DNA from: Planctomycetota bacterium
Lineage (GTDB): Bacteria > Planctomycetota > Phycisphaerae > WQYP01
Assembly: GCA_021831565.1 (NCBI GenBank)
Contig: JAKBMM010000025.1
Span: 1-40,953, forward strand
Direction of reading: 5' to 3'
Length of the DNA stretch: 40,953 bases
Below, piece after piece: positions 1 through 23,776 of this stretch. The position numbers and the translations under genes are program-made. The notes under the pieces were generated by a model. The model saw nothing but the letters and a program-made list of their open reading frames with translations. It was not told the origin of the DNA and searched no databases. How positions within the stretch are numbered: the first letter of the stretch is position 1; each line of letters starts with the position of its first letter.

Positions 1-448
1 GTTCGTTCCACATTTCCCACATCACGCCGCGACCACGGAAATGCCGCACCGCCGCGGCGACCCACCGGCAGAACGCCCAGCGGGCCTGCGGGGTGCTCGG
101 CGCCAGGCCGTGGTCATACAGCGGATTACCGAAACATAGGATCCACAGCGGCCGGATATGGTAGCGGCGCAGCGCCGCGAGCAGGTAGTCGTAAGAACGA
201 AAATCGTAGCGACCTTTGCGCAATTCGGTTGTGTTCCATTCAAAACCCTTGCGGATCCAATGAAAGCCCGCCGCGGCGAGCATCCGCATTTCGCCGGGGG
301 GGGGATACGCAAAATGAATGTTGACGCCCATGGATTGCGGTACGCGCGGGGCGGGCCAAGTTGAGGAATGCGTCGGCGCCGCCGGCGCTGGGAGCGCCGT
401 TGCGGTAATCAATATGCCGGTCGCCAGAAGCAGCGGAAATTTACGCAT
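1..448 (-). CDS. Secreted clan GH-A glycoside hydrolase, N-terminal part (runs off the window edge)
   Basis: The reading frame from the ATG at 448 stays open to the left edge, giving about 149 residues. It begins with a Sec signal peptide (Lys/Arg start, hydrophobic core, AxA-type cleavage near residue 25). The mature part has the beta/alpha-barrel opening typical of GH39/GH5-like enzymes: a GVNIHF strand, then an AAAGFHWIRKGFEW segment. The fragment ends exactly at WEMWNE, the Asn-Glu pair that carries the catalytic acid/base in clan GH-A. The nucleophile half lies outside the window. It starts 29 bp after the fcl stop on the same strand, so it is probably the last gene of a gmd-fcl-glycosidase operon. 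No Shine-Dalgarno sequence is visible. A run of nine C residues on the coding strand (plus 296-304) lies inside the gene. Family and substrate cannot be decided from the fragment. Confidence 0.82.
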   Translation of the reverse strand, partial: MRKFPLLLATGILITATALPAPAAPTHSSTWPAPRVPQSMGVNIHFAYPPPGEMRMLAAAGFHWIRKGFEWNTTELRKGRYDFRSYDYLLAALRRYHIRPLWILCFGNPLYDHGLAPSTPQARWAFCRWVAAAVRHFRGRGVMWEMWNE

Positions 449-13235: not shown

Positions 13236-14153
13236 TCAGATCCGCCGCCGCAATTGCACGAATTTTTGTGGCGAAACACCATAGATGCGGCGAAACGTTC
13301 GCGAAAACTGGAAGGGATCGTCGAAACCTATGGCGCCGGCAACCTGCTTGACCAGCGCACCGGGCATTTGCAACCGCTGGGCGGCGTCGCACATTTTTAA
13401 TCGGATTAAATATCGGTAGGGACTTTGATGATCGTAGCGACTAAACAGACGGCAAAGGTATGCCGGATCAATGTGGCATCGCGCCGCGACTTCCGATAGT
13501 TTCCGCATTTCGCCGTAGTGGGTTTCCAGGTAATGCCGACAGCGCTGATAGGTCGCAAAGACCGGTGTTGCGGTGGCTCCCTGGGAAACGGCGCTTTCGG
13601 CGATGCGCAGAAGCATCTGCTCTACAATCGCGGCGCAAATGGCCCTGCTGAAACGAGATTGGCGCAGACCCGCACTGATAAGGTCTTCGAAAAGTTGCTG
13701 AATCTGGTTGGGCAAGGAATATGGCACTATCCGGCCGCGTTCGAGCCCCGAAGCTTTCAGTAATTGGCGCCCCCGCCGCCCCAGGAAATCCACAAAATAT
13801 TTCATCAGGGGTCGATCGGGAAAGCTGCGAATATCGTGCGGCATGCCCGGCCCGTAAGCGAATACCGCGCCCGGAGTCAAAGGACGGCGACGGTTCCGCA
13901 GCGTAAGCCATCCTCTGCCCTCCGCCACGAATTCGATGGAATAGTAAGGGAAGTCGGATCGATGAATCCGATAATCCGGCGCGCAGTATTCGCATCCGCC
14001 GCATACAATAATCAGTGGATCACGCCCGCCCGCGGGGCCGAGATAAAACCGCCGCGCTTTGGAAATTTGAGTGGAAAAGAATTTTGGCTCACGCAAGGCG
14101 CCGGGGGCGCTATCTTTGGCCGCTTCTGGAAATTGGGAAACGCGCCGCGGCAT
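13236..14153 (-). CDS. AraC family transcriptional regulator (left border of the sugar locus)
   Basis: A 305-residue regulator with an N-terminal cupin-like sensing domain (residues about 60-140, including YYSIEFVAEGRGWLTL and PGAVFAYGPGMPHDI) and a C-terminal double helix-turn-helix (about 205-302). The DNA-binding part has the classic IDPAYLCRLFSRYDHQSPYRYLI and IGFDDPFQFSRTFRRIYGVSPQKF signatures. The ATG at 14153 has AAGGTG upstream. It is divergent from the GDP-mannose 3,5-epimerase gene with a 111-bp shared control region. That region contains a 12-bp direct repeat with 21-bp spacing, typical of AraC-family half-sites, so it probably controls the plus-strand operon in response to a sugar (inference). 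Confidence 0.92.
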   Translation of the reverse strand: MPRRVSQFPEAAKDSAPGALREPKFFSTQISKARRFYLGPAGGRDPLIIVCGGCEYCAPDYRIHRSDFPYYSIEFVAEGRGWLTLRNRRRPLTPGAVFAYGPGMPHDIRSFPDRPLMKYFVDFLGRRGRQLLKASGLERGRIVPYSLPNQIQQLFEDLISAGLRQSRFSRAICAAIVEQMLLRIAESAVSQGATATPVFATYQRCRHYLETHYGEMRKLSEVAARCHIDPAYLCRLFSRYDHQSPYRYLIRLKMCDAAQRLQMPGALVKQVAGAIGFDDPFQFSRTFRRIYGVSPQKFVQLRRRI

Positions 14154-14264: not shown

Positions 14265-15389
14265 ATGGCGGGCGGGCGCATGGGGCGCGCCGGGCCGGCA
14301 GGTTCTTATGGAGTTTCGATGATGGGCGGACAACGGCCGGCGGCGGCAAGCAGCGGTTGGGCCACAGCAAAAACCTCGGGAGTGAAGCCGGAGGATTTGA
14401 TTGTCATAACGGGCGCGGGCGGATTTATCGGCGGGGCGCTGGTGCGCTACTTTCGGGAACAGGGCTTTGGGCGTATCCGGGCGGTGGACAAAAAACCTTT
14501 GCCCGAGTGGTATCAGCGAACGGCTGGGGTGGAAAATCTGTGCCTGGACGTAAGCCGCGCGGCCAATTGCCGGCAAGCCTGCCAGGACGCGGTGGAGGTC
14601 TACAATCTCGCGGCGGACATGGGCGGCATGGGTTTTATCGAACGATTCCGCGTGGAATGCCTCCGCAGCATTCTGATCAATACCCACATGATTGAAGCGG
14701 CCTACCAGGCTGGCGCCCAGCGCTACTTTTTCTCCTCGTCGGCGTGCGCTTACAACATTACCCTGCAGAAGGACCCGCGGGGGCGGGCGCTGAAGGAATC
14801 CGACGCTTATCCCGCCCTGGCGGAACGCGGGTACGGCTGGGAAAAGCTCATGTCCGAGATATTCTGCCAGGAATATTGGGCGGAACGCGGGCTTCGGACC
14901 GCCATCGCCCGTTTTCACAACGTATACGGCCCCTTGGGCACCTGGGATGGCGGGCGGGAAAAAGCGCCGGCCGCCCTGTGTCGCAAGGTCATCGAAGCCA
15001 AAGACAAGGGATATGACTCCATAGAGATCTGGGGCGACGGCAGCCAAACTCGTAGCTTCATGTACATAGATGACTGTCTAAAAGGAATCGACGGCATCAT
15101 GCACGGCGCGGAACTGATCGCCACGCCGGTCAATCTTGGTTCGAGCCAGCTGGTAACCATCAACGAATTGGCTCGCCTGGTGGAAGAAATCGCCGGTGTT
15201 TCCCTGCGGCACAAGTATGACCGGAGTGCTCCGCAGGGCGTTGGAGGGCGCAATTCCGATAACACGTTCATCAAAAAAGTACTTGGTTGGGAGCCGGATA
15301 CGCCGCTGCGCGAGGGGCTGGCCAAAACCTACACCTGGATCGAGCAGCAGTACCAGCAGCGCCGGGCCGGTCGGCGAACCGTGGAATGA
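14265..15389 (+). CDS. GDP-mannose 3,5-epimerase
   Basis: A 374-residue extended SDR enzyme that epimerises GDP-D-mannose at C3 and C5, giving GDP-L-galactose (and GDP-L-gulose). The NAD site is GAGGFIGG (50-57). Key residues line up with plant GME: Cys161 in SSSACAY (plant Cys145), Tyr190 and Lys194 in YGWEK (Tyr174, Lys178) and Lys233 in GGREKAPAALCRK (Lys217). The GME-specific segments LAADMGGMGFI, FHNVYGPLGTW and WGDGSQTRSF are also present. The first about 40 residues are low in conservation and may be mis-started. A purine-rich AAGGAGAGG lies about 14 nt before the ATG at 14265, further than usual, and later starts (ATG 14280, 14319) are possible. It is the first gene of the plus-strand operon running to 21591. 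Confidence 0.9.
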   Translation: MAGGRMGRAGPAGSYGVSMMGGQRPAAASSGWATAKTSGVKPEDLIVITGAGGFIGGALVRYFREQGFGRIRAVDKKPLPEWYQRTAGVENLCLDVSRAANCRQACQDAVEVYNLAADMGGMGFIERFRVECLRSILINTHMIEAAYQAGAQRYFFSSSACAYNITLQKDPRGRALKESDAYPALAERGYGWEKLMSEIFCQEYWAERGLRTAIARFHNVYGPLGTWDGGREKAPAALCRKVIEAKDKGYDSIEIWGDGSQTRSFMYIDDCLKGIDGIMHGAELIATPVNLGSSQLVTINELARLVEEIAGVSLRHKYDRSAPQGVGGRNSDNTFIKKVLGWEPDTPLREGLAKTYTWIEQQYQQRRAGRRTVE

Positions 15390-15423: not shown

Positions 15424-16212
15424 ATGGATCGTGAGTCATCCAGCGGCGAAATCCCCTACCGCATGGCGCTGGCGGGCGGCTGGATCGATCAGCCTTTTGT
15501 TTCGCGTCTGAACCCCGCGCCACCGGGCGCCATGGTGGTAGTGTCGCTGCAACCGACGGATGCGTTCATGGAACGGGCCGGCATGGCGACCGGAACGCGG
15601 AAAGTCGCCCGGAGGTTGTGGAACGGAAAATTGCCGATGCGCAACCGGTGGGAATTGGTGCGGGAACTTTATGCCGCGGAAAACCAGGGCGGCGCCGAAC
15701 CTTCCGGTTCGCAGGACATGATCGGTTTGATCTATCCGGGTGTGAACCGCCTGGATTATGACGCCGCCCACGAAGGCGGTGTTTTCCCCCGGCACATCGA
15801 GTCCAATCAAGATCCGGAAATAGCGTCATGGATTGAAAAAGTGGTGCATCTATTGCCCGTTGGACCGCGCCCCGCAGGGTACCATCCGCTCGGCATAAAA
15901 AATCTTCAGCCGCAGTGGATCCGGCGGTTGGGGCAAACGGGCCGGGACTGTTACGAAGCGATCATCCACCGGAACCCGCAGGCCTTGGGCGCGTCTATGA
16001 ACGAGTGTATGAAATGTTGGGAAAAACTTCTGCCCGGCACGGTGCGCCACCCCACCATCCATCAGGACCTGGTGGGATTGCTGCGGAAGTATCAAAGCTC
16101 TTATCCGGGCGCCATGTATTCTGGCTGCGGCGGCGGCTATCTGTATATCGTTTCCGAAACGCCGATCTCCGGTACATGGAATATCCGGGTGCGCACCGCG
16201 GAGGAATGGTGA
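15424..16212 (+). CDS. GHMP-kinase-like protein with degenerate ATP motif
   Basis: A 262-residue protein of unknown function. Residues 10-24 (EIPYRMALAGGWIDQ) resemble GHMP sugar-kinase motif 1 (P.RI.LAGGWTD.P), as in L-fucokinase and HddA. SGSQDMIGLIYPG (94-106, with Asp98 in the QD pair) resembles the catalytic GG.QDQ region, and GAMYSGCGGGYLY (229-241) resembles motif 3 (GAKLTGAGGGG). Motif 2, normally GLGSSS, is replaced by GMATGTR (53-59), so ATP binding may be altered or lost. It lies 34 nt after the epimerase and ends 2 nt before a nucleotidylyltransferase, an arrangement like sugar kinase/guanylyltransferase pairs. Start choice is uncertain: ATG 15403 is also in frame. The GHMP relation is my pattern match, not a proven family assignment. 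Confidence 0.72.
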   Translation: MDRESSSGEIPYRMALAGGWIDQPFVSRLNPAPPGAMVVVSLQPTDAFMERAGMATGTRKVARRLWNGKLPMRNRWELVRELYAAENQGGAEPSGSQDMIGLIYPGVNRLDYDAAHEGGVFPRHIESNQDPEIASWIEKVVHLLPVGPRPAGYHPLGIKNLQPQWIRRLGQTGRDCYEAIIHRNPQALGASMNECMKCWEKLLPGTVRHPTIHQDLVGLLRKYQSSYPGAMYSGCGGGYLYIVSETPISGTWNIRVRTAEEW

Positions 16213-16214
16213 TC

Positions 16215-17027
16215 ATGCGATATGTGGCCGTTTGCGGCGATTTTGATGATTTGCGTTCCCGGCACATGCGCTTCCTCCAGGAAGCCGCAAAACTCGGCGC
16301 TGTTTACGTGCGGCTTTGGTCCGATCAACTCTGCCGCATCCGGAAAAACCGTACGCCGAAATTTGCGCAGCAAGAACGGTTGTACTTTGTGCGGGCTCTA
16401 CGCTACGTACGCAAAGCGACCGTGGCGGACGGTCCTGTGGATCACGACTCCCTGTCCGATATGAAACCGCGGCCGGACATCTGGGTGGTGGATCAAGCCG
16501 GCGATAACGCCGCCCGGCGAAAGTTCTGTCGAACCCATGGCTTGGATTATCAAGTCATCGCCGATGAACAACTCCAGGGATTTCCCTGGCCGGCGCCGGA
16601 GGACTGCTCTTGGGTTCGATCGAAAGTAATCGTGACCGGTTGCTACGACTGGCTGCATACCGGCCATATCCGGTTTTTCGAGGAAGCCGCCAAGTATGGC
16701 GAATTATACGTGGTCGTCGGTCATGACCGGAATATTCAGCGGCTCAAAGGTCCGGGCCATCCCCTGCTGCCGCAGGAGGAACGCGGATACCTCGTGCAGT
16801 CCATCCGCCATGTGCGGCGGACGTTGATATCATCCGGCGCCGGCTGGCTGGACGCGGAACCGGAAATCAAACAGATACAACCTGATATATATATTGTTAA
16901 TGAAGACGGCGATCAACCGTCTAAACGCGATTACTGCCGGCAAAACGGCATCCGCTATCTGGTGCTGCGGCGGCGGCCCAGGCCGGGGCTTCCCCGGCGC
17001 CAGAGCACCGCTTTGCGCGGCTTTTAA
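16215..17027 (+). CDS. Tandem nucleotidylyltransferase (one degenerate, one intact domain)
   Basis: A 270-residue protein made of two cytidylyltransferase-like domains. The second (about 136-255) has the intact signature GCYDWLHTGHIRFFEEAAKYGELYVVVGHD with the HxGH motif at 148-151, and a QEERGYLVQSIRHVRR segment in place of the ISSTxIR region. The first (1-110) repeats the same plan (GDFDDLRSRHMRFLQEAAKLGAVYV and QQERLYFVRALRYVRK) but has lost HxGH, so it is probably structural. Such enzymes couple NTP to a sugar phosphate or alcohol phosphate; the substrate is not evident. The ATG at 16215 is chosen because GAGG stands 10 nt upstream. An ATG at 16206 would overlap the previous stop but has no properly spaced site. 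Confidence 0.85.
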   Translation: MRYVAVCGDFDDLRSRHMRFLQEAAKLGAVYVRLWSDQLCRIRKNRTPKFAQQERLYFVRALRYVRKATVADGPVDHDSLSDMKPRPDIWVVDQAGDNAARRKFCRTHGLDYQVIADEQLQGFPWPAPEDCSWVRSKVIVTGCYDWLHTGHIRFFEEAAKYGELYVVVGHDRNIQRLKGPGHPLLPQEERGYLVQSIRHVRRTLISSGAGWLDAEPEIKQIQPDIYIVNEDGDQPSKRDYCRQNGIRYLVLRRRPRPGLPRRQSTALRGF

Positions 17028-17111: not shown

Positions 17112-17450
17112 ATGAAAAGATACGGCATGGTGATCGGAGCCAACGATGAAAAAATTATGGAATACAAGCGTCTGCACGCGGCGGTCTGGCCCGGTGTTTT
17201 GAAGACCATCCACGACTGCCACATCCGCAACTACTCGATCTTTCTGCGGCGGTTGCCGGACGGAAAGCGTTACCTGTTCAGTTACTTTGAGTATCATGGG
17301 CGGGACTTCGCCGCGGACATGGTCCGAATGGCCGCCGATCCTCTCACGCAGAAGTGGTGGAACCTCTGCAAGCCCTGTCAAACCCCTTTATCCGATCGGG
17401 CTGAAAATGAATGGTGGGCCAATATGGAAGAGGTTTTCCATCAGGACTGA
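17112..17450 (+). CDS. L-rhamnose/L-fucose mutarotase family protein
   Basis: A 112-residue protein of the RhaM family (PF05336), which interconverts alpha and beta anomers of L-rhamnose or related 6-deoxy sugars. YKRLHAAVWPGV places the catalytic-type His at residue 22, as in E. coli RhaM. RNYSIFLRR, LFSYFEYHG and the C-terminal DPLTQKWW segment complete the ferredoxin-like dimer fold. Length is typical (about 104-115). AGGAG lies 7 nt before the ATG. The position between a nucleotidylyltransferase and two fucosidase-family genes suggests L-fucose or L-galactose as substrate instead of rhamnose (inference). Confidence 0.9.
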   Translation: MKRYGMVIGANDEKIMEYKRLHAAVWPGVLKTIHDCHIRNYSIFLRRLPDGKRYLFSYFEYHGRDFAADMVRMAADPLTQKWWNLCKPCQTPLSDRAENEWWANMEEVFHQD

Positions 17451-17469
17451 ATCAAGGAAGTCGTGCCCC

Positions 17470-20214
17470 ATGGCTGCAATGAATCGAAGAACCTGGAACT
17501 TGACTATGGGTATGGCCGCGGCCGGTGTGCTCCCCGGCGGCCGGCGGCGGCGGGCGGAGAAACCACTTTCTTCGTTTGTCACAAACCTAACGATATATGT
17601 CAGTCCGCTTGGAAACGATGGTTGGAGCGGCGCCTTGCCCGCCGCCAATCCCGATCACTCCGACGGGCCGGTGGCCAGTATTCATCGGGCATTGGAGATT
17701 GCCCGCCAGCGACGGAGCGCCCGGATCAACCGTGCCCTGGGCGTGCATATCCTCCTCCGTGGAGGGATATACGAGCTTAAAAAATCCATCGTTTTCGAGC
17801 CGGAAGATTCCGGAACGGCCCAAACGCCTTTGGTTATCGCGGCCTACCCCGGTGAAAAGCCCATGATCTCCGGCGGAGTGACGGTGGGGAAATGGAAGGC
17901 GCGCCGCGATGGCTTATGGGAGGCTCCCGCCCCCGAAGCCATGAAGGCGCTGACCATCAATCAACTCTTTGTGCGAGGGCAACGCAAAGACCGCCCCCGG
18001 CTTCCCGAGAAAAACTGGTATTTCATGGCGGGCCTTGTGGAGCGGCAGGAATTGCGCAATCGCGCTTTCCTTTTTGAAAAAGGGCAGTTAAACCCGAACT
18101 GGTACGCTCTAAGAGACGTGGAGGTTGTTTCCTTTGAAAGCTGGACAACGGAGCGGCAGTGGCTGCAAACCGTTGACCCTGAAACTGATACGGCTTATCT
18201 CCAGAACCAAGGGCACGATTTTGGAACTTTTGAAATCCGGCAACGCTTTTATCTTGACAACGTACGCGAAGCCCTCCAACACCCGGGTCAATGGTATTTT
18301 GATCGGTCCCTGCAAAAAATCCTCTACCTGCCGGAATCCAATCAACAGATTGATAGATTCAATGCCGTGGTTCCCATCCTCAGACATCTGGTTGAGTTTC
18401 GGGGTAGTCCCGAGTCCCATGCCCATGTCGGGCATATCACTATCCAGGGAATCTGGTTTGAGTATACCGCTTGTGCGGTGTCCAGAGCCGCCCTGGCCAA
18501 CGATATTCAATCGGCAACGCGCGGCTGGGAAGCGGCAATTTTCGGGCATGGCGTCCAGGATGTGAAAATACTCGGATGCGCGATCGCGCATGGCGGTGAG
18601 CACGCGATCCGGTTTATGGGGGCCAGCCGCCGTGTGGTCGTTGCGCAATGTCACATGGAGGACATGGGCGGTGGCGGCGTGTATCTGGGTTTGGACTGCC
18701 CCATTGCGGAGTACTACCAGATGCCGCCAACTACCCGATTCACCGGAGAATGTGTAGTTGACAATAATTTTATCCACGATGGCGGTAAACTTTTTCCACA
18801 AGCATGCGGGGTCTGGGTTGGACATGCCGGCGACAATCAGATCCGTCACAATGTGATTACAAATTTATACTATACGGGCATTAACGTGGGCTGGAATTGG
18901 GCTACGACTCCCAGTCCGGCGGTGCGAAACATCGTGGAGTTCAATCGCGTCTATCACTTGGGCAACGGCGTACTTAGCGATGCCGGCGGCATTTATACTT
19001 TAGGTGTCTCACCGGGGACGGTGTTAAGAAACAACTGGTTGTCCAATCTGGTTCCGTATAACGCCCAGCGCATGTTCAATGGCGTGTATCTGGACGAAGG
19101 CAGCTCTCACATCCTGGTGGAGAATAACATTGTTCAAAAAGCCGACGGCATGGGTTTGCTGCTTAACTACGGAATAAAAAACACGGTGTTAAATAATGTT
19201 TTCGAGCAGACCGAAGGGATACTCATCGAACGGGATACGGATACCTACGGGAAACGTATACCGCTTAGTCTGCTCTTCGATCGCAACATTGTGGTGGTGA
19301 ATGGCCGCAACGTGCTGCCACCTTATAGCCAGGCGGGGTGGCGGTTCAACCACAACGTGTACTGGAGTTCCCGGGGAATCGCGCCGACGATCCATGGGGT
19401 TAGTTTCAAACAATGGCAGGCCACCGGTCAGGATATCCGCTCGATGGCGGCCTTTCCCGGTTTACACACAGTTCATGGCGCTATACGGGCGGAACCGGGA
19501 TCAGCCGCCAATCAGGTGGGATTCCGACCCATTGAAACCGGAAATATCGGTTTATACGGCCCCGCCGCGTGGCGGGCATTGCCCGGTACCCTCAGACCGT
19601 TACCCATGGCCGACCGAACACCCTGTCCCATGCCGACCGCCAAGCCGGTGCAGGCAACTTTTCAACGCGAGAAAGCAGGGGATTATCCTTACGGTGCGAT
19701 CACGTGGGGTAACGGCAATCGTGTCGCGGGGGCTACGGAGATCACGGGGCGGCAATCGCTTCGCTTAGGCCCTCATGCGGTAACGTACACGTACTACCAG
19801 CCGTGGTTGCGGGAGTCCAATCTTATCCTGAAGTTTTCAATTTTGCTTCCGCAACATATCGGGACAACTCTTCTCGTCGAGCTGCGCGATTGGCGTAGCA
19901 ATCCGTATATCACCGGACCGAGCATCAGATTTGGATCGGACGGAAGTGTTCGGGCCAATGGTGTTCCGGTCGTGCGAATGCCATTGGGTAAATGGGTGGA
20001 TGTTCGTGTTCATTATGACTACCGGAGGGAGACTTCGCGTCGGCACTACCGGATAAGTCTGAGCCTGGCGGGCCAAGAGTTGGCAGCCAGGCAAGTTCCA
20101 ATTCCCGGGTCCGCCGGGTTCGGTATCCTGACCTGGCTGGGGTTTATCAATCAGGGGAAGGTTGGGCAAGAGTGCTACGTGGGGTACATCGATTGCGGCC
20201 CGGAGAGTCGCTAG
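17470..20214 (+). CDS. Secreted right-handed beta-helix glycosidase, GH141-like
   Basis: A 914-residue protein. It begins with a twin-arginine-like signal (NRRTWNLTMGMAAAG). Residues about 35-120 contain the opening ISV-type strand IYVSPLGNDGWSG and GGIYELKKSIVFEPEDSGTAQTPLVIAAYPGEKPMISGG, typical of the GH141/polysaccharide-lyase-like beta-helix family. The middle (about 330-640) has regular NN.I...G coils with Asn ladders (VVDNNFIHDGG, IRHNVITNLYYTGINVG, LVENNIVQKADGMG). The C-terminal about 200 residues look like a lectin or beta-sandwich module. The founding GH141 enzyme is an alpha-L-fucosidase, which fits the GH29 gene next door. ATG 17470 is chosen because AAGGAAG lies about 10 nt upstream. 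Family assignment is by pattern only. Confidence 0.8.
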   Translation: MAAMNRRTWNLTMGMAAAGVLPGGRRRRAEKPLSSFVTNLTIYVSPLGNDGWSGALPAANPDHSDGPVASIHRALEIARQRRSARINRALGVHILLRGGIYELKKSIVFEPEDSGTAQTPLVIAAYPGEKPMISGGVTVGKWKARRDGLWEAPAPEAMKALTINQLFVRGQRKDRPRLPEKNWYFMAGLVERQELRNRAFLFEKGQLNPNWYALRDVEVVSFESWTTERQWLQTVDPETDTAYLQNQGHDFGTFEIRQRFYLDNVREALQHPGQWYFDRSLQKILYLPESNQQIDRFNAVVPILRHLVEFRGSPESHAHVGHITIQGIWFEYTACAVSRAALANDIQSATRGWEAAIFGHGVQDVKILGCAIAHGGEHAIRFMGASRRVVVAQCHMEDMGGGGVYLGLDCPIAEYYQMPPTTRFTGECVVDNNFIHDGGKLFPQACGVWVGHAGDNQIRHNVITNLYYTGINVGWNWATTPSPAVRNIVEFNRVYHLGNGVLSDAGGIYTLGVSPGTVLRNNWLSNLVPYNAQRMFNGVYLDEGSSHILVENNIVQKADGMGLLLNYGIKNTVLNNVFEQTEGILIERDTDTYGKRIPLSLLFDRNIVVVNGRNVLPPYSQAGWRFNHNVYWSSRGIAPTIHGVSFKQWQATGQDIRSMAAFPGLHTVHGAIRAEPGSAANQVGFRPIETGNIGLYGPAAWRALPGTLRPLPMADRTPCPMPTAKPVQATFQREKAGDYPYGAITWGNGNRVAGATEITGRQSLRLGPHAVTYTYYQPWLRESNLILKFSILLPQHIGTTLLVELRDWRSNPYITGPSIRFGSDGSVRANGVPVVRMPLGKWVDVRVHYDYRRETSRRHYRISLSLAGQELAARQVPIPGSAGFGILTWLGFINQGKVGQECYVGYIDCGPESR

Positions 20215-20262: not shown

Positions 20263-21591
20263 ATGGTACGATCGCGAAAAGGCCCGTTGCCGATACCCTG
20301 GTGGGAAGTCAAAAGAGAAATGCCGTCCGCCGCGGATAAATTGCATACCGCCGACATGGCCTGGTGGACCAAAGCGCGCTTTGGCATGTTCATTCACTGG
20401 GGGCTGTACGCGATTCCCGGGGGTGTTTGGAAGGGCAAACGTGTGCCCGGCGGGGGTGAATGGATTATGAATACGGCGCGAATCAGCGACAAGCGGTATG
20501 CCCAACTGGCGAAGCGTTTTAATCCGGTGGATTTTAACGCCGATCAGTGGGTGAAAATCGCAAAAGACGCCGGCATGAAATACCTCGTGATCACGACCAA
20601 GCATCATGACGGCTTTTGTATGTTCGATACCAAGGCCACCAACTACAACGTTGTGGCCGGCACCCCGTGGCATACCGATCCGATGGCGCTTTTATCCAAG
20701 GCTTGTCGGAAGCAGGGTATCCGGTTCGGCACCTATTATTCCATTATGGATTGGCACAGCCCGGACCAAGTTGGCGCCGAACCCGCCGTGCATAATTACA
20801 ACCCCGCGCACATGAAAAAGGGGCGAAACAGGAATTATTTGCGCTTTCTGAAACGGCAAATCAGCGAGTTGATCCGGCAATATCATACCAATCTAATATT
20901 TTTCGATGGAGAATGGATGCACGGATGGAATCGTGCGGAGGCGCGGGCGTTGTATTTCTATATCCGCCGGATGGCCCCCGCCGTGATTCTCAATGCGCGC
21001 ATCGGTTTTGGCTATGGCGATTATCTGACGCCGGAGCAGAATATTCCCCGCGGCGGTCTGCCGGGGTCATGGGAAACCAATATGACCCTCAACAATACCT
21101 GGGGATATGTATCGTGGGATCATGATTGGAAATCCTCGAACACGCTGATCCGTCACCTGATTCAGTGCGCCAGCGGGGGCGGCAATTTTCTTTTGAATGT
21201 CAGTCCCACCGAGCAAGGGATAATTCCCAAGCCGCAAGCAGATCGATTAATAGCGGTGGGTAAATGGCTCAAAGTCAACGGCCAGGCCATTTACGGATCT
21301 CATCGCTCCCCGTTCAAGGCCGCTTTGCCCTTTGGCTACGCCACGCAAAAGCCGGGCAAGGTCTTTTTGGAGATTATTCGCTGGCCCAAAAGTCGCACGC
21401 TGCTCGTGCCCATGACCAACCGGATCGCGCAAGCTTATCTGCTGGCCAATCCACGTATCAAACTGAAAACCACGTCCGAAAGCTCCGGCCAACGGGTCCA
21501 CCTGCCCGCCCAGGCGCCGGACCCGGCAGCCAGCGTGGTGGTGCTGAAAATCAACGGAGCGGTGAAATCAACGGAGGCGCAGGCTCCATAA
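20263..21591 (+). CDS. Alpha-L-fucosidase family protein (GH29)
   Basis: A 442-residue retaining glycosidase that removes terminal alpha-L-fucose or the related alpha-L-galactose. GH29 markers are ARFGMFIHWGLYAIPGGVW (His45), ITTKHHDGFCMF (His114, His115) and the nucleophile Asp215 in LIFFDGEW. SGGGNFLLNVSPTEQGIIP is a further family signature. The catalytic domain spans about 28-360 with a short C-terminal beta domain. Unusually, no signal peptide is visible, so it may act in the cytoplasm on imported oligosaccharides, unlike its Tat-like neighbour. GAGGAG lies 6 nt before the ATG. It is the last gene of the operon before the second AraC regulator. Confidence 0.94.
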   Translation: MVRSRKGPLPIPWWEVKREMPSAADKLHTADMAWWTKARFGMFIHWGLYAIPGGVWKGKRVPGGGEWIMNTARISDKRYAQLAKRFNPVDFNADQWVKIAKDAGMKYLVITTKHHDGFCMFDTKATNYNVVAGTPWHTDPMALLSKACRKQGIRFGTYYSIMDWHSPDQVGAEPAVHNYNPAHMKKGRNRNYLRFLKRQISELIRQYHTNLIFFDGEWMHGWNRAEARALYFYIRRMAPAVILNARIGFGYGDYLTPEQNIPRGGLPGSWETNMTLNNTWGYVSWDHDWKSSNTLIRHLIQCASGGGNFLLNVSPTEQGIIPKPQADRLIAVGKWLKVNGQAIYGSHRSPFKAALPFGYATQKPGKVFLEIIRWPKSRTLLVPMTNRIAQAYLLANPRIKLKTTSESSGQRVHLPAQAPDPAASVVVLKINGAVKSTEAQAP

Positions 21592-22725: not shown

Positions 22726-22834
22726 TAGGCGCTTTCTTGACCTTATCGGACCTGCCGGCAGATTTTCCTCTTATAATCGTCTTTACGAATATTTTAACGA
22801 TTTGTAAAAAATTTCACTCATTGTGAGCGTATTA

Positions 22835-22843
22835 TGGTATAAT
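22835..22843 (+). promoter_or_regulatory. Extended -10 promoter TGGTATAAT
   Basis: A perfect TATAAT (22838-22843) is preceded by TGn, giving an extended -10 element. No -35 at standard spacing is obvious. The small inverted repeat TCAC-TCATT-GTGA lies just upstream (22814-22826) and could be a regulator site. It would transcribe the long leader of the DUF2617-like gene. The same TGGTATAAT string occurs upstream of csrA. Confidence 0.55.
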
Positions 22844-22905
22844 GCTTTACGGCAGCTTGAAGATTTCGGTTGCCTTATGGCATGGTGTCAGGCTATGCCG
22901 CCAAT

Positions 22906-22939
22906 GCTCAGCATCGGGGAAATTTACCCATGCCTGAGC
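22906..22939 (+). other. Leader hairpin
   Basis: GCTCAG (22906-22911) pairs with CTGAGC (22934-22939), then CAT with ATG and GGG with CCC, with single-base bulges and an AU-rich loop. The stem has about 12 pairs and no T-run after it, so it is not a simple terminator. It may be a regulatory leader element. Confidence 0.4.
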
Positions 22940-23200
22940 CGCGGTTATTTGGTACGGAGAACGTTTTGGCGAGTGGTGTTTGATTACTCCAAGTGTGGGA
23001 ATGGAGCCGGTCTTGTGAAAAAAAGGTACAATGTTCCGCGCGACGCCACAACTGTAGAAAATCAAAGGAGATGCGCAAGTGGCCGCAGGATAGAAATCAG
23101 GCCGAATCCGGAAAAATTCAGTAAGCCGGCGGCGATTTTGAATCGTAAGAAGAGTATGAGACGTCAGGGATTGACCATTAATATGCCAGAAGGAGCCGTT

Positions 23201-23776
23201 GTGAAACAAAGTAAAGAATCAACGATGGGTGTTCATCACAAAAAACCACGAAGCGCCGGTCTTTCGGTGCTTATTTATGATCGCATTCTGCATCCTGAAC
23301 TTTTCGCCGCGGATGTGCGCCGCGCTCGCGTAATGGGCGATTTTGATGTAAACCTGTGGCTGCTGACCGGTGGCGGGCACATGGCGGCCATTTCCGGCGC
23401 CCATACGTTTCTGGAACTGACCTGTTTTCCCAACAAGGCCCTGCCCGAGCGCGGGCTGATAGAGAAACTGCCGTGCAAAGGCGATAAGCAGTTCGATCTG
23501 GCGCTGGGCGACGATTATTATTATTACCTGGCTCTGAACGAGGAGCACGTCACCGAGGCGTTGTTTGAAAACTCAGTGACGGAAATGCTTCGCCTGGCTC
23601 AAGAGCAGGACGGGCTGGTTGCACACCGCAAGAATGATCTTGGTCGGACGGAGTATCTTAGCGTGCTCGTGACGCAGTTGCATCGGCGCGCGATCCATAT
23701 TGAAGGATTTCACCTGCTCGGCGAGGTGCGGGCGTTGATTCGCACGCAATCGATCTTGGAACCGATACGACGCTGA
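23201..23776 (+). CDS. DUF2617-like protein of unknown function
   Basis: A 191-residue protein. LSVLIYDRILHPELF near the N-terminus, LPERGLIEKLPCKGD in the middle and a C-terminal IHIEGFHLLGEVRALIRTQSILE resemble the DUF2617 family seen in planctomycetes (HPELF..., and FHTFPDE...KTQSLFE at the end). No catalytic motif or signal peptide is visible, and the function is unknown. The GTG at 23201 is chosen because AAGGAG stands 5 nt upstream (23190-23195). Longer in-frame starts exist but give a poorly protein-like N-terminus. The gene stands alone on the plus strand between the AraC gene and the convergent GT87 gene. Confidence 0.75.
   Translation: MKQSKESTMGVHHKKPRSAGLSVLIYDRILHPELFAADVRRARVMGDFDVNLWLLTGGGHMAAISGAHTFLELTCFPNKALPERGLIEKLPCKGDKQFDLALGDDYYYYLALNEEHVTEALFENSVTEMLRLAQEQDGLVAHRKNDLGRTEYLSVLVTQLHRRAIHIEGFHLLGEVRALIRTQSILEPIRR

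What the first reader, a model, noticed from the sequence alone, without database searches (positions are those of the whole stretch)
16215..17027. Tandem nucleotidylyltransferase with one dead copy
Two copies of the same domain lie in one chain. Only the second keeps HxGH. The first has the same layout (QEAAKLGAVYV against EEAAKYGELYV) but a changed GDFDDLRSRH. A dead domain may bind the nucleotide-sugar acceptor or regulate its partner.
Basis: seen in the sequence. Interest (0 to 1): 0.5.

Follow-up and report, generated by a model that had tools for sequence, protein, structure and literature searches.

The report
Sugar-activating enzyme with built-in dead twin
A bacterial enzyme that appears to attach a nucleotide to a sugar phosphate carries an inactive copy of itself in the same chain; the inactive half has been kept across many bacterial phyla, probably as a structural partner, inside an operon that looks like an undescribed route for using rare L-sugars.

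Summary
ORF 16215-17027 encodes two copies of the HxGH nucleotidylyltransferase domain; profiles of the two halves align over 119 columns (99.95% probability). The first half keeps HxGH in 0 of 100 rows, the second in 101 of 101. The loss is ancient: sampled first halves form one clade. The first half is under purifying selection (dN/dS 0.30; second half 0.06) and keeps the R-Y-V motif found at the dimer interface of related enzymes. The AlphaFold model superposes along its whole length on human ethanolamine-phosphate cytidylyltransferase (Z 25.2). Most likely the dead half is an internal dimer partner for the live half.

The gene sits in a conserved operon with a GDP-mannose 3,5-epimerase homologue and a compact GHMP-fold kinase with an L-fucokinase-like sugar pocket; neighbours include mannose-1-phosphate guanylyltransferase, alpha-L-fucosidases, sugar importers and AraC/LacI regulators. 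All 11 single-domain relatives checked are fused to that kinase. I infer a Leloir-like route from L-galactose via GDP-L-galactose and GDP-mannose to mannose-1-phosphate. Substrate, nucleotide and direction are untested. I found no description in the searches made. New variant of a known kind; the operon is the more interesting part.

The parts
16215..17027 (+). tandem HxGH-family nucleotidylyltransferase, 270 aa, whole ORF with stop
16215..16586 (+). first (degenerate) nucleotidylyltransferase domain, residues 1-124
   Evidence: fold: Z 18.1 to 2b7l over 110 residues, model range 1..117
16236..16271 (+). degenerate signature GDFDDLRSRHMR in place of GxxDxxHxGHxR (residues 8-19)
16401..16409 (+). 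R-Y-V (residues 63-65), interface motif kept in the dead half
   Evidence: motif role from PMC4470507 passages
16587..16619 (+). linker, residues 125-135
16620..17024 (+). second (catalytic) nucleotidylyltransferase domain, residues 136-270
16638..16667 (+). intact GCYDWLHTGH (HxGH) motif, residues 142-151
16986..17018 (+). GLPRRQSTALR, in the place of the RTEGISTS-type signature (signature name recalled)
15424..16212 (+). compact GHMP-fold sugar kinase-like protein (start codon uncertain)
14265..15389 (+). GDP-mannose 3,5-epimerase homologue (start codon uncertain; homology begins near 14385)
17112..17450 (+). L-rhamnose mutarotase-like protein (PF05336)
13236..14153 (-). divergent AraC-type regulator
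20263..21591 (+). alpha-L-fucosidase family protein (PF01120)

Best explanation
The protein is a sugar-1-phosphate nucleotidylyltransferase made of two homologous domains joined head to tail. The second domain does the chemistry. The first arose by duplication within this family, lost both catalytic histidines and the C-terminal signature before the sampled lineages diverged, and is kept as a built-in dimer partner: related single-domain enzymes work as homodimers, and here one chain supplies both halves, one of them dead, as in eukaryotic ethanolamine-phosphate cytidylyltransferase. The operon (epimerase, compact GHMP kinase, tandem nucleotidylyltransferase, often followed by mannose-1-phosphate guanylyltransferase) most likely phosphorylates an L-galacto-configured sugar at C1, activates it as an NDP-sugar (GDP if the epimerase keeps its usual substrate), epimerises it to NDP-mannose and recovers mannose-1-phosphate. 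Shown by computation: tandem homology, universal degeneracy in the sample, purifying selection, fold and domain arrangement of the model, operon conservation, kinase fusion. Inferred: internal-dimer role, L-galactose as substrate, GTP as nucleotide, catabolic direction.
For: Halves homologous. HxGH 0 of 100 in the first half, 101 of 101 in the second. First halves are one clade, 21 rows, support 100/100. dN/dS against the same-genus genome: 0.295 first half, 0.056 second half. R63 is kept in 100 of 101 first halves; [quoted passage not shown] Model pLDDT 90.9; whole chain superposes on 3elb over 254 residues at 2.5 A, Z 25.2. In the 80 loci: kinase directly upstream in 71 of 76 with room, epimerase in 52 of 63, ManC-like gene downstream in 21 of 77, 14 of them within 100 bp. 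Epimerase: 315 bits to 2c59; the catalytic residues named in PMC6678494 are invariant in 24 of 24. Kinase: fold Z 20.3 to WcbL and 18.6 to the FKP fucokinase domain; counterparts of FKP R592, W599, D601, G759, Q761, D762 are invariant in 53 of 53. 11 of 11 single-domain relatives are fused to the same kinase.
Against: No biochemistry; substrate and nucleotide are unknown. The kinase lacks about 80 residues that include the adenine site of FKP and its P-loop is altered, so ATP as donor is uncertain, and no Pfam GHMP model matches any of 53 members. ManC-like genes lie downstream in only 21 of 77 loci and the epimerase upstream in 52 of 63. Conserved first-half residues include pocket-like positions, which a pure scaffold need not keep. 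Most flanking glycosidases found are named alpha-L-fucosidases, which would point to L-fucose. HxGH enzymes that use GTP are unknown to me (recalled). Only two of the fused-type loci have a closer epimerase homologue next to them (L133, L136).
Confidence: 0.55

Rival explanations
1. The first half is a regulatory or ligand-binding pseudoenzyme: it kept a remodelled pocket (FDD, LWSD, GxxPKF) that binds a sugar phosphate, nucleotide or effector and controls the second half.
For: F10, D11, W35, D37, G45, P48, F50 are at least 90% identical across 101 rows although both catalytic histidines are gone; dN/dS 0.295.
Against: R-Y-V and E-R-x-Y, which belong to the interface and core rather than a pocket, are at least as conserved. 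No ligand was tested. The first half as a whole is less conserved than the second (mean top-residue share 0.54 against 0.78).
Confidence: 0.25
2. The first half docks the separate kinase (or the epimerase) so that the sugar phosphate is channelled; the fused single-domain form solves the same problem by covalent linkage.
For: In the loci examined, tandem forms are not fused to the kinase and 11 of 11 single-domain forms are.
Against: This contrast separates two clades only, so it may be one historical accident. 5 of 76 loci lack the kinase directly upstream. No complex was modelled.
Confidence: 0.15
3. The substrate is L-fucose, not L-galactose, and the operon is an FKP-like salvage that makes an NDP-L-fucose or its 3,5-epimer.
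For: Alpha-L-fucosidase family genes in flanks (13 of 80 loci by tblastn), in four loci inside the operon (L026, L029, L084, L100); RbsD/FucU-like genes in 2 of 91 downstream ORFs; FKP prefers L-fucose about 100-fold over L-galactose (PMC11982464 passage).
Against: A 3,5-epimerase acting on NDP-L-fucose would give a 6-deoxy sugar that mannose-6-phosphate metabolism cannot use, and ManC next to the gene would be unexplained (inference). The own genome has a separate fucose isomerase domain.
Confidence: 0.3
4. The operon is biosynthetic: it supplies GDP-L-galactose for surface glycans.
For: The characterised bacterial epimerase is proposed to serve LPS (PMC6678494 passages); one fused-type locus has a GT2-like gene directly downstream (my reading of the ORF).
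Against: Tandem-type loci show AraC (18 of 58 with room) and LacI regulators, sugar importers and glycosidases; no glycosyltransferase family is among the first 25 families listed in either scan.
Confidence: 0.2

Closest known systems
Ethanolamine-phosphate cytidylyltransferase (Pcyt2/ECT; 3elb, 4xsv)
   Same: Two nucleotidylyltransferase domains in one chain; whole-length superposition (Z 25.2, 254 residues, 2.5 A).
   Different: About 18% identity; in ECT both halves still read HxGH (alignment) and the first half is taken as the main catalytic one (recalled), whereas here the first half is dead and has lost HxGH. Substrate and neighbours differ.
Glycerol-3-phosphate cytidylyltransferase (TagD/TarD; 1coz, 2b7l)
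   Same: Single-domain fold of each half; HxGH; R-Y-V interface motif.
   Different: Homodimer of identical chains; equivalog model missed by far (48.9 against 165.4 bits).
Heptose-1-phosphate adenylyltransferase (HldE C-domain/HldC, TIGR02199)
   Same: HxGH enzyme acting on a sugar-1-phosphate; best NCBIfam match.
   Different: 74 bits against a cut-off of 181.5; HldE-like domains form a separate clade; paired with a different kinase fold (recalled).
L-fucokinase/GDP-fucose pyrophosphorylase (FKP)
   Same: GHMP kinase plus nucleotidylyltransferase for an L-galacto-configured sugar; sugar-pocket residues shared.
   Different: FKP's transferase is not of the HxGH fold (recalled); FKP kinase is about 80 residues longer in the nucleotide lobe.
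GDP-mannose 3,5-epimerase (plant 2c59; Methylacidiphilum enzyme)
   Same: Upstream gene is a clear homologue with catalytic C, K, Y/K and R kept.
   Different: Found here in an operon with kinase and tandem transferase; the known bacterial case is ascribed to LPS synthesis (PMC6678494 passages).

Membership tests
Cytidylyltransferase-like superfamily (PF01467) | family model match over cut-off | tested here: met
   57.9 bits, cut-off 21, two stretches
Cytidylyltransferase-like superfamily (PF01467) | HxGH in the second half | tested here: met
   101 of 101 rows
Cytidylyltransferase-like superfamily (PF01467) | HxGH in the first half | tested here: not met
   0 of 100 rows
Ethanolamine-phosphate cytidylyltransferase (ECT) | tandem domains packed as an internal dimer | tested here: met
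   predicted model only: Z 25.2, 254 residues aligned to 3elb
Ethanolamine-phosphate cytidylyltransferase (ECT) | HxGH in both halves, as in 3elb | tested here: not met
   ECT has H.GH in both halves; first half here has none
Ethanolamine-phosphate cytidylyltransferase (ECT) | activity on phosphoethanolamine | not testable with these tools
   needs assay; operon context argues against
Heptose-1-phosphate adenylyltransferase (TIGR02199) | equivalog cut-off 181.5 bits | tested here: not met
   74 bits
Glycerol-3-phosphate cytidylyltransferase (TIGR01518) | equivalog cut-off 165.4 bits | tested here: not met
   48.9 bits
GHMP kinases (gene 15424-16212) | GHMP fold | tested here: met
   predicted model: Z 20.3 to WcbL, 18.9 to galactokinase, 18.6 to FKP fucokinase
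GHMP kinases (gene 15424-16212) | Pfam GHMP model match | tested here: not met
   none among 53 members scanned
GHMP kinases (gene 15424-16212) | intact ATP/adenine-binding segment and P-loop | tested here: not met
   31 residues between D22 and G53 against about 110 in FKP; GMATGT for GLGTSS, placed by eye
[quoted passage not shown]
   residues named in PMC6678494; positions placed by counting on the alignment
[quoted passage not shown]
   needs assay

The most novel reading that the evidence does not exclude
The operon is a Leloir-type pathway for L-galactose not described in the papers searched: a minimal GHMP kinase (perhaps with an unusual phosphoryl donor such as the pyrophosphate made in the next step) yields L-galactose-1-phosphate, the tandem HxGH enzyme with its dead twin acts as an L-galactose-1-phosphate guanylyltransferase (a nucleotide choice I know of for no HxGH enzyme), and the epimerase and ManC return mannose-1-phosphate, running part of the plant vitamin C route backwards. 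It is spread over Planctomycetota, Verrucomicrobiota, Chloroflexota, Acidobacteriota and others.
Probability: 0.33. Interest if true: 0.78.

Novelty: new variant of a known kind. Interest (0 to 1): 0.52.

Why it matters
It gives a bacterial case of a nucleotidylyltransferase that replaced its homodimer by a live-plus-dead pair, with the dead half on the opposite side from human ECT; sampling both architectures (single-domain fused forms and tandem forms) makes it a good system for how a pseudoenzyme domain arises and what it is kept for. If the pathway reading is right, it also explains how many uncultured polysaccharide degraders could use L-galactose and gives bacterial GDP-mannose 3,5-epimerases a second, catabolic role.

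Tried and rejected
Recent or local loss of HxGH: rejected; 0 of 100 rows keep it and the first halves form one clade. Chance repeat: rejected. Pseudogene or decay: rejected; open frame in relatives and dN/dS 0.295. One row (L032) reads HSRH in the first half, with both histidines but Arg for Gly.

Order of the duplication relative to the split between fused and tandem forms: not resolved; the tree has few columns, open forks and long first-half branches, and its bootstrap had not settled.

Viral contigs: no relative in one scan. Fold comparison of the first half by itself was not run.

Literature: the paper search (open-licence PMC only). One search (epimerase, Verrucomicrobia, kinase) held no paper; its phrase was written without the comma, so that nought is weak. 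The others gave plant, FKP, epimerase and PCYT2 papers; I saw listings and starts of abstracts, and by 'find' some passages of PMC11982464, PMC8787198, PMC6678494, PMC4470507, PMC10154630, PMC10880615 and PMC7592913. None of what I saw describes this operon. Subscription papers were not searched.

Rows dropped before counts: two rows (L003, a 91% copy, and L004, the same protein as L111) from the tree; the G001 and G054 copies counted once; L091 is gapped in the first half; L071, L083 and L091 were left out of alignment A2 for length. In one search, 33 of 397 genomes matched: by my reading 22 tandem (two of them, L123 and L124, by inspection), 9 of the kinase-linked single-domain kind (one, G489, judged from adjacency), one with contig-end fragments (G713) and one of another subfamily (G621).

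Full report
Observation. The ORF at 16215-17027 (+) encodes 270 residues. Pfam finds CTP_transf_like twice; the first half alone falls just under the curated cut-off (20.3 against 21 bits), the second is clear. Profiles built from first and second halves of 78 relatives align over 119 columns with 99.95% probability.

Is the first half always degenerate? A search of one genome per species with a four-sequence profile gave 258 relatives, of which the best 80 were kept; their record titles name Planctomycetota, Verrucomicrobia, Chloroflexi, Acidobacteriota, Spirochaetes, Gemmatimonadota, Latescibacteria and others. Adding the class-level search (33 of 397 genomes at E 1e-20) I aligned 101 tandem proteins. 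HxGH: 0 of 100 in the first half, 101 of 101 in the second. The first half has its own signature, G-x-F-D-[D/N]-[L/I]-x-x-x-x-x-R-F: F10 95, D11 97, R19 100, F20 87 of 101. E54, R55 and Y57 are invariant in 101, and R63 is kept in 100. In a tree of 69 domains the first halves are one clade (21 rows, 100/100), apart from second halves (21), kinase-fused single domains (11) and HldE-like domains (16). So the loss is old and shared. Between the window and its same-genus relative, dN/dS is 0.295 in the first half and 0.056 in the second: constrained, though less so.

Structure. AlphaFold2 on 78 sequences gave pLDDT 90.9 and pTM 0.89. The top match is human ethanolamine-phosphate cytidylyltransferase, aligned over 254 residues at 2.5 A, Z 25.2, across model residues 1..270; single-domain enzymes match one half each (S. 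aureus TarD 2b7l_B over 1..117, Z 18.1; B. subtilis TagD 1coz over 135..270, Z 16.6). Both halves therefore have the fold, and the model packs them as ECT does. [quoted passage not shown] In the present family residues 63-65 of the dead half are RYV in 76, RFV in 12 and RYI in 5 of 101 rows. Retaining the interface motif while losing both catalytic histidines and the C-terminal GLxxRxST signature is what an internal dimer partner would look like. The second half keeps D145, H148, G150, H151, K178, G179, R190, G258, R262, S264 and R268 in 101 of 101.

Genome context. Directly upstream lies a kinase-like gene and before it an SDR. In the 80 loci the kinase is directly upstream in 71 of 76 with room, the SDR upstream in 52 of 63, an AraC regulator diverges in 18 of 58, and a ManC-like gene follows in 21 of 77, 14 of them within 100 bp. 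In L026, L029 and L100 an alpha-L-fucosidase-like gene lies between SDR and kinase, and in L084 between kinase and transferase. Pfam scans of 91 downstream and 53 upstream ORFs (selections, see Tried and rejected) found ManC domains in 18, alpha-L-fucosidase in 4 and 2, LacI, sugar ABC and periplasmic binding proteins, GH95 in 2, phosphomannose isomerase in 2 and RbsD/FucU in 2.

The SDR is a GDP-mannose 3,5-epimerase homologue: 259 bits by single sequence, the next kind 94 bits, 315 bits by profile. The catalytic cysteine, lysine, YxxxK and conserved arginine named in PMC6678494 correspond to C121, K193, Y150/K154 and R289, invariant in 24 of 24 (placed by counting on the alignment, with the plant residue numbers recalled).

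The kinase gene matches no Pfam GHMP model in 53 members, but its model (pLDDT 88.7) has the GHMP fold: WcbL Z 20.3, galactokinase 18.9, FKP fucokinase 18.6 with the highest identity of these, 22%. The six FKP residues described around fucose (R592, W599, D601, G759, Q761, D762; PMC11982464 passages) correspond to R13, W20, D22, G95, Q97 and D98, invariant in 53 of 53. The first three are placed by the HMMER alignment (itself not significant) and the rest by motif against FKP homologues; hhalign aligned only the last 79 columns. The segment from GGWxD to the P-loop is about 80 residues shorter than in FKP, removing the region where FKP binds adenine, and the P-loop reads GMATGT. Whether it uses ATP is open.

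Fusion evidence. In 11 of 11 single-domain relatives examined the nucleotidylyltransferase is fused to this same kinase. Two fused-type loci have an SDR next to them at 42% and 61% identity (L133, L136). This links transferase and kinase in one path without relying on operon order.

Function. A kinase with an L-fucokinase-like pocket, a sugar-1-phosphate type transferase, an enzyme whose relatives interconvert GDP-L-galactose and GDP-mannose, and a mannose-1-phosphate guanylyltransferase together fit: L-galactose to L-galactose-1-P, to GDP-L-galactose, to GDP-mannose, to mannose-1-P with GTP regained. Net, one phosphoryl donor is spent, as in the Leloir pathway. L-fucose would fit the glycosidases and kinase pocket but leads to a 6-deoxy product and leaves ManC unexplained. 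The own genome has a ManC-type domain elsewhere and a fucose isomerase domain, so it need not use this operon for fucose. None of this is tested.

Verdict. The dead half is most likely an internal dimer partner; a ligand-binding or docking role remains possible. It is a new variant of a known kind; the operon-level reading is the more surprising claim and is marked as inference.

Noticed in passing
window 15424-16212; also L102, L103, L105, L125-L131: The GHMP-like kinase is about 80 residues short in the nucleotide lobe and has an altered P-loop (GMATGT here; GLAASS in some fused forms), yet keeps the sugar pocket. Phosphoryl donor is an open question.
   Followed up: partly
L144 6828-7910; L145 6248-7330: Another HxGH subfamily: 361-aa proteins with a single HxGH domain at the N terminus and a C-terminal part that did not match the kinase query.
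   Followed up: no
L102, L104, L105 (genome G272): Three copies of the fused transferase-kinase in one genome; two (L102, L105) lie beside a gene that looks like a glycosyltransferase (my reading of the ORF, not searched).
   Followed up: no
window 17287-20214: Large right-handed beta-helix protein between the mutarotase and the alpha-L-fucosidase; its same-genus counterpart matches PF13229. Possibly a polysaccharide-degrading enzyme.
   Followed up: no
window 22823-23776: ORF with a marginal match to DUF2617 (24.2 bits, cut-off 22.3).
   Followed up: no
L032 1126-1926: First half reads HSRH: both histidines kept, Gly replaced by Arg; the only row with His at the first position.
   Followed up: no
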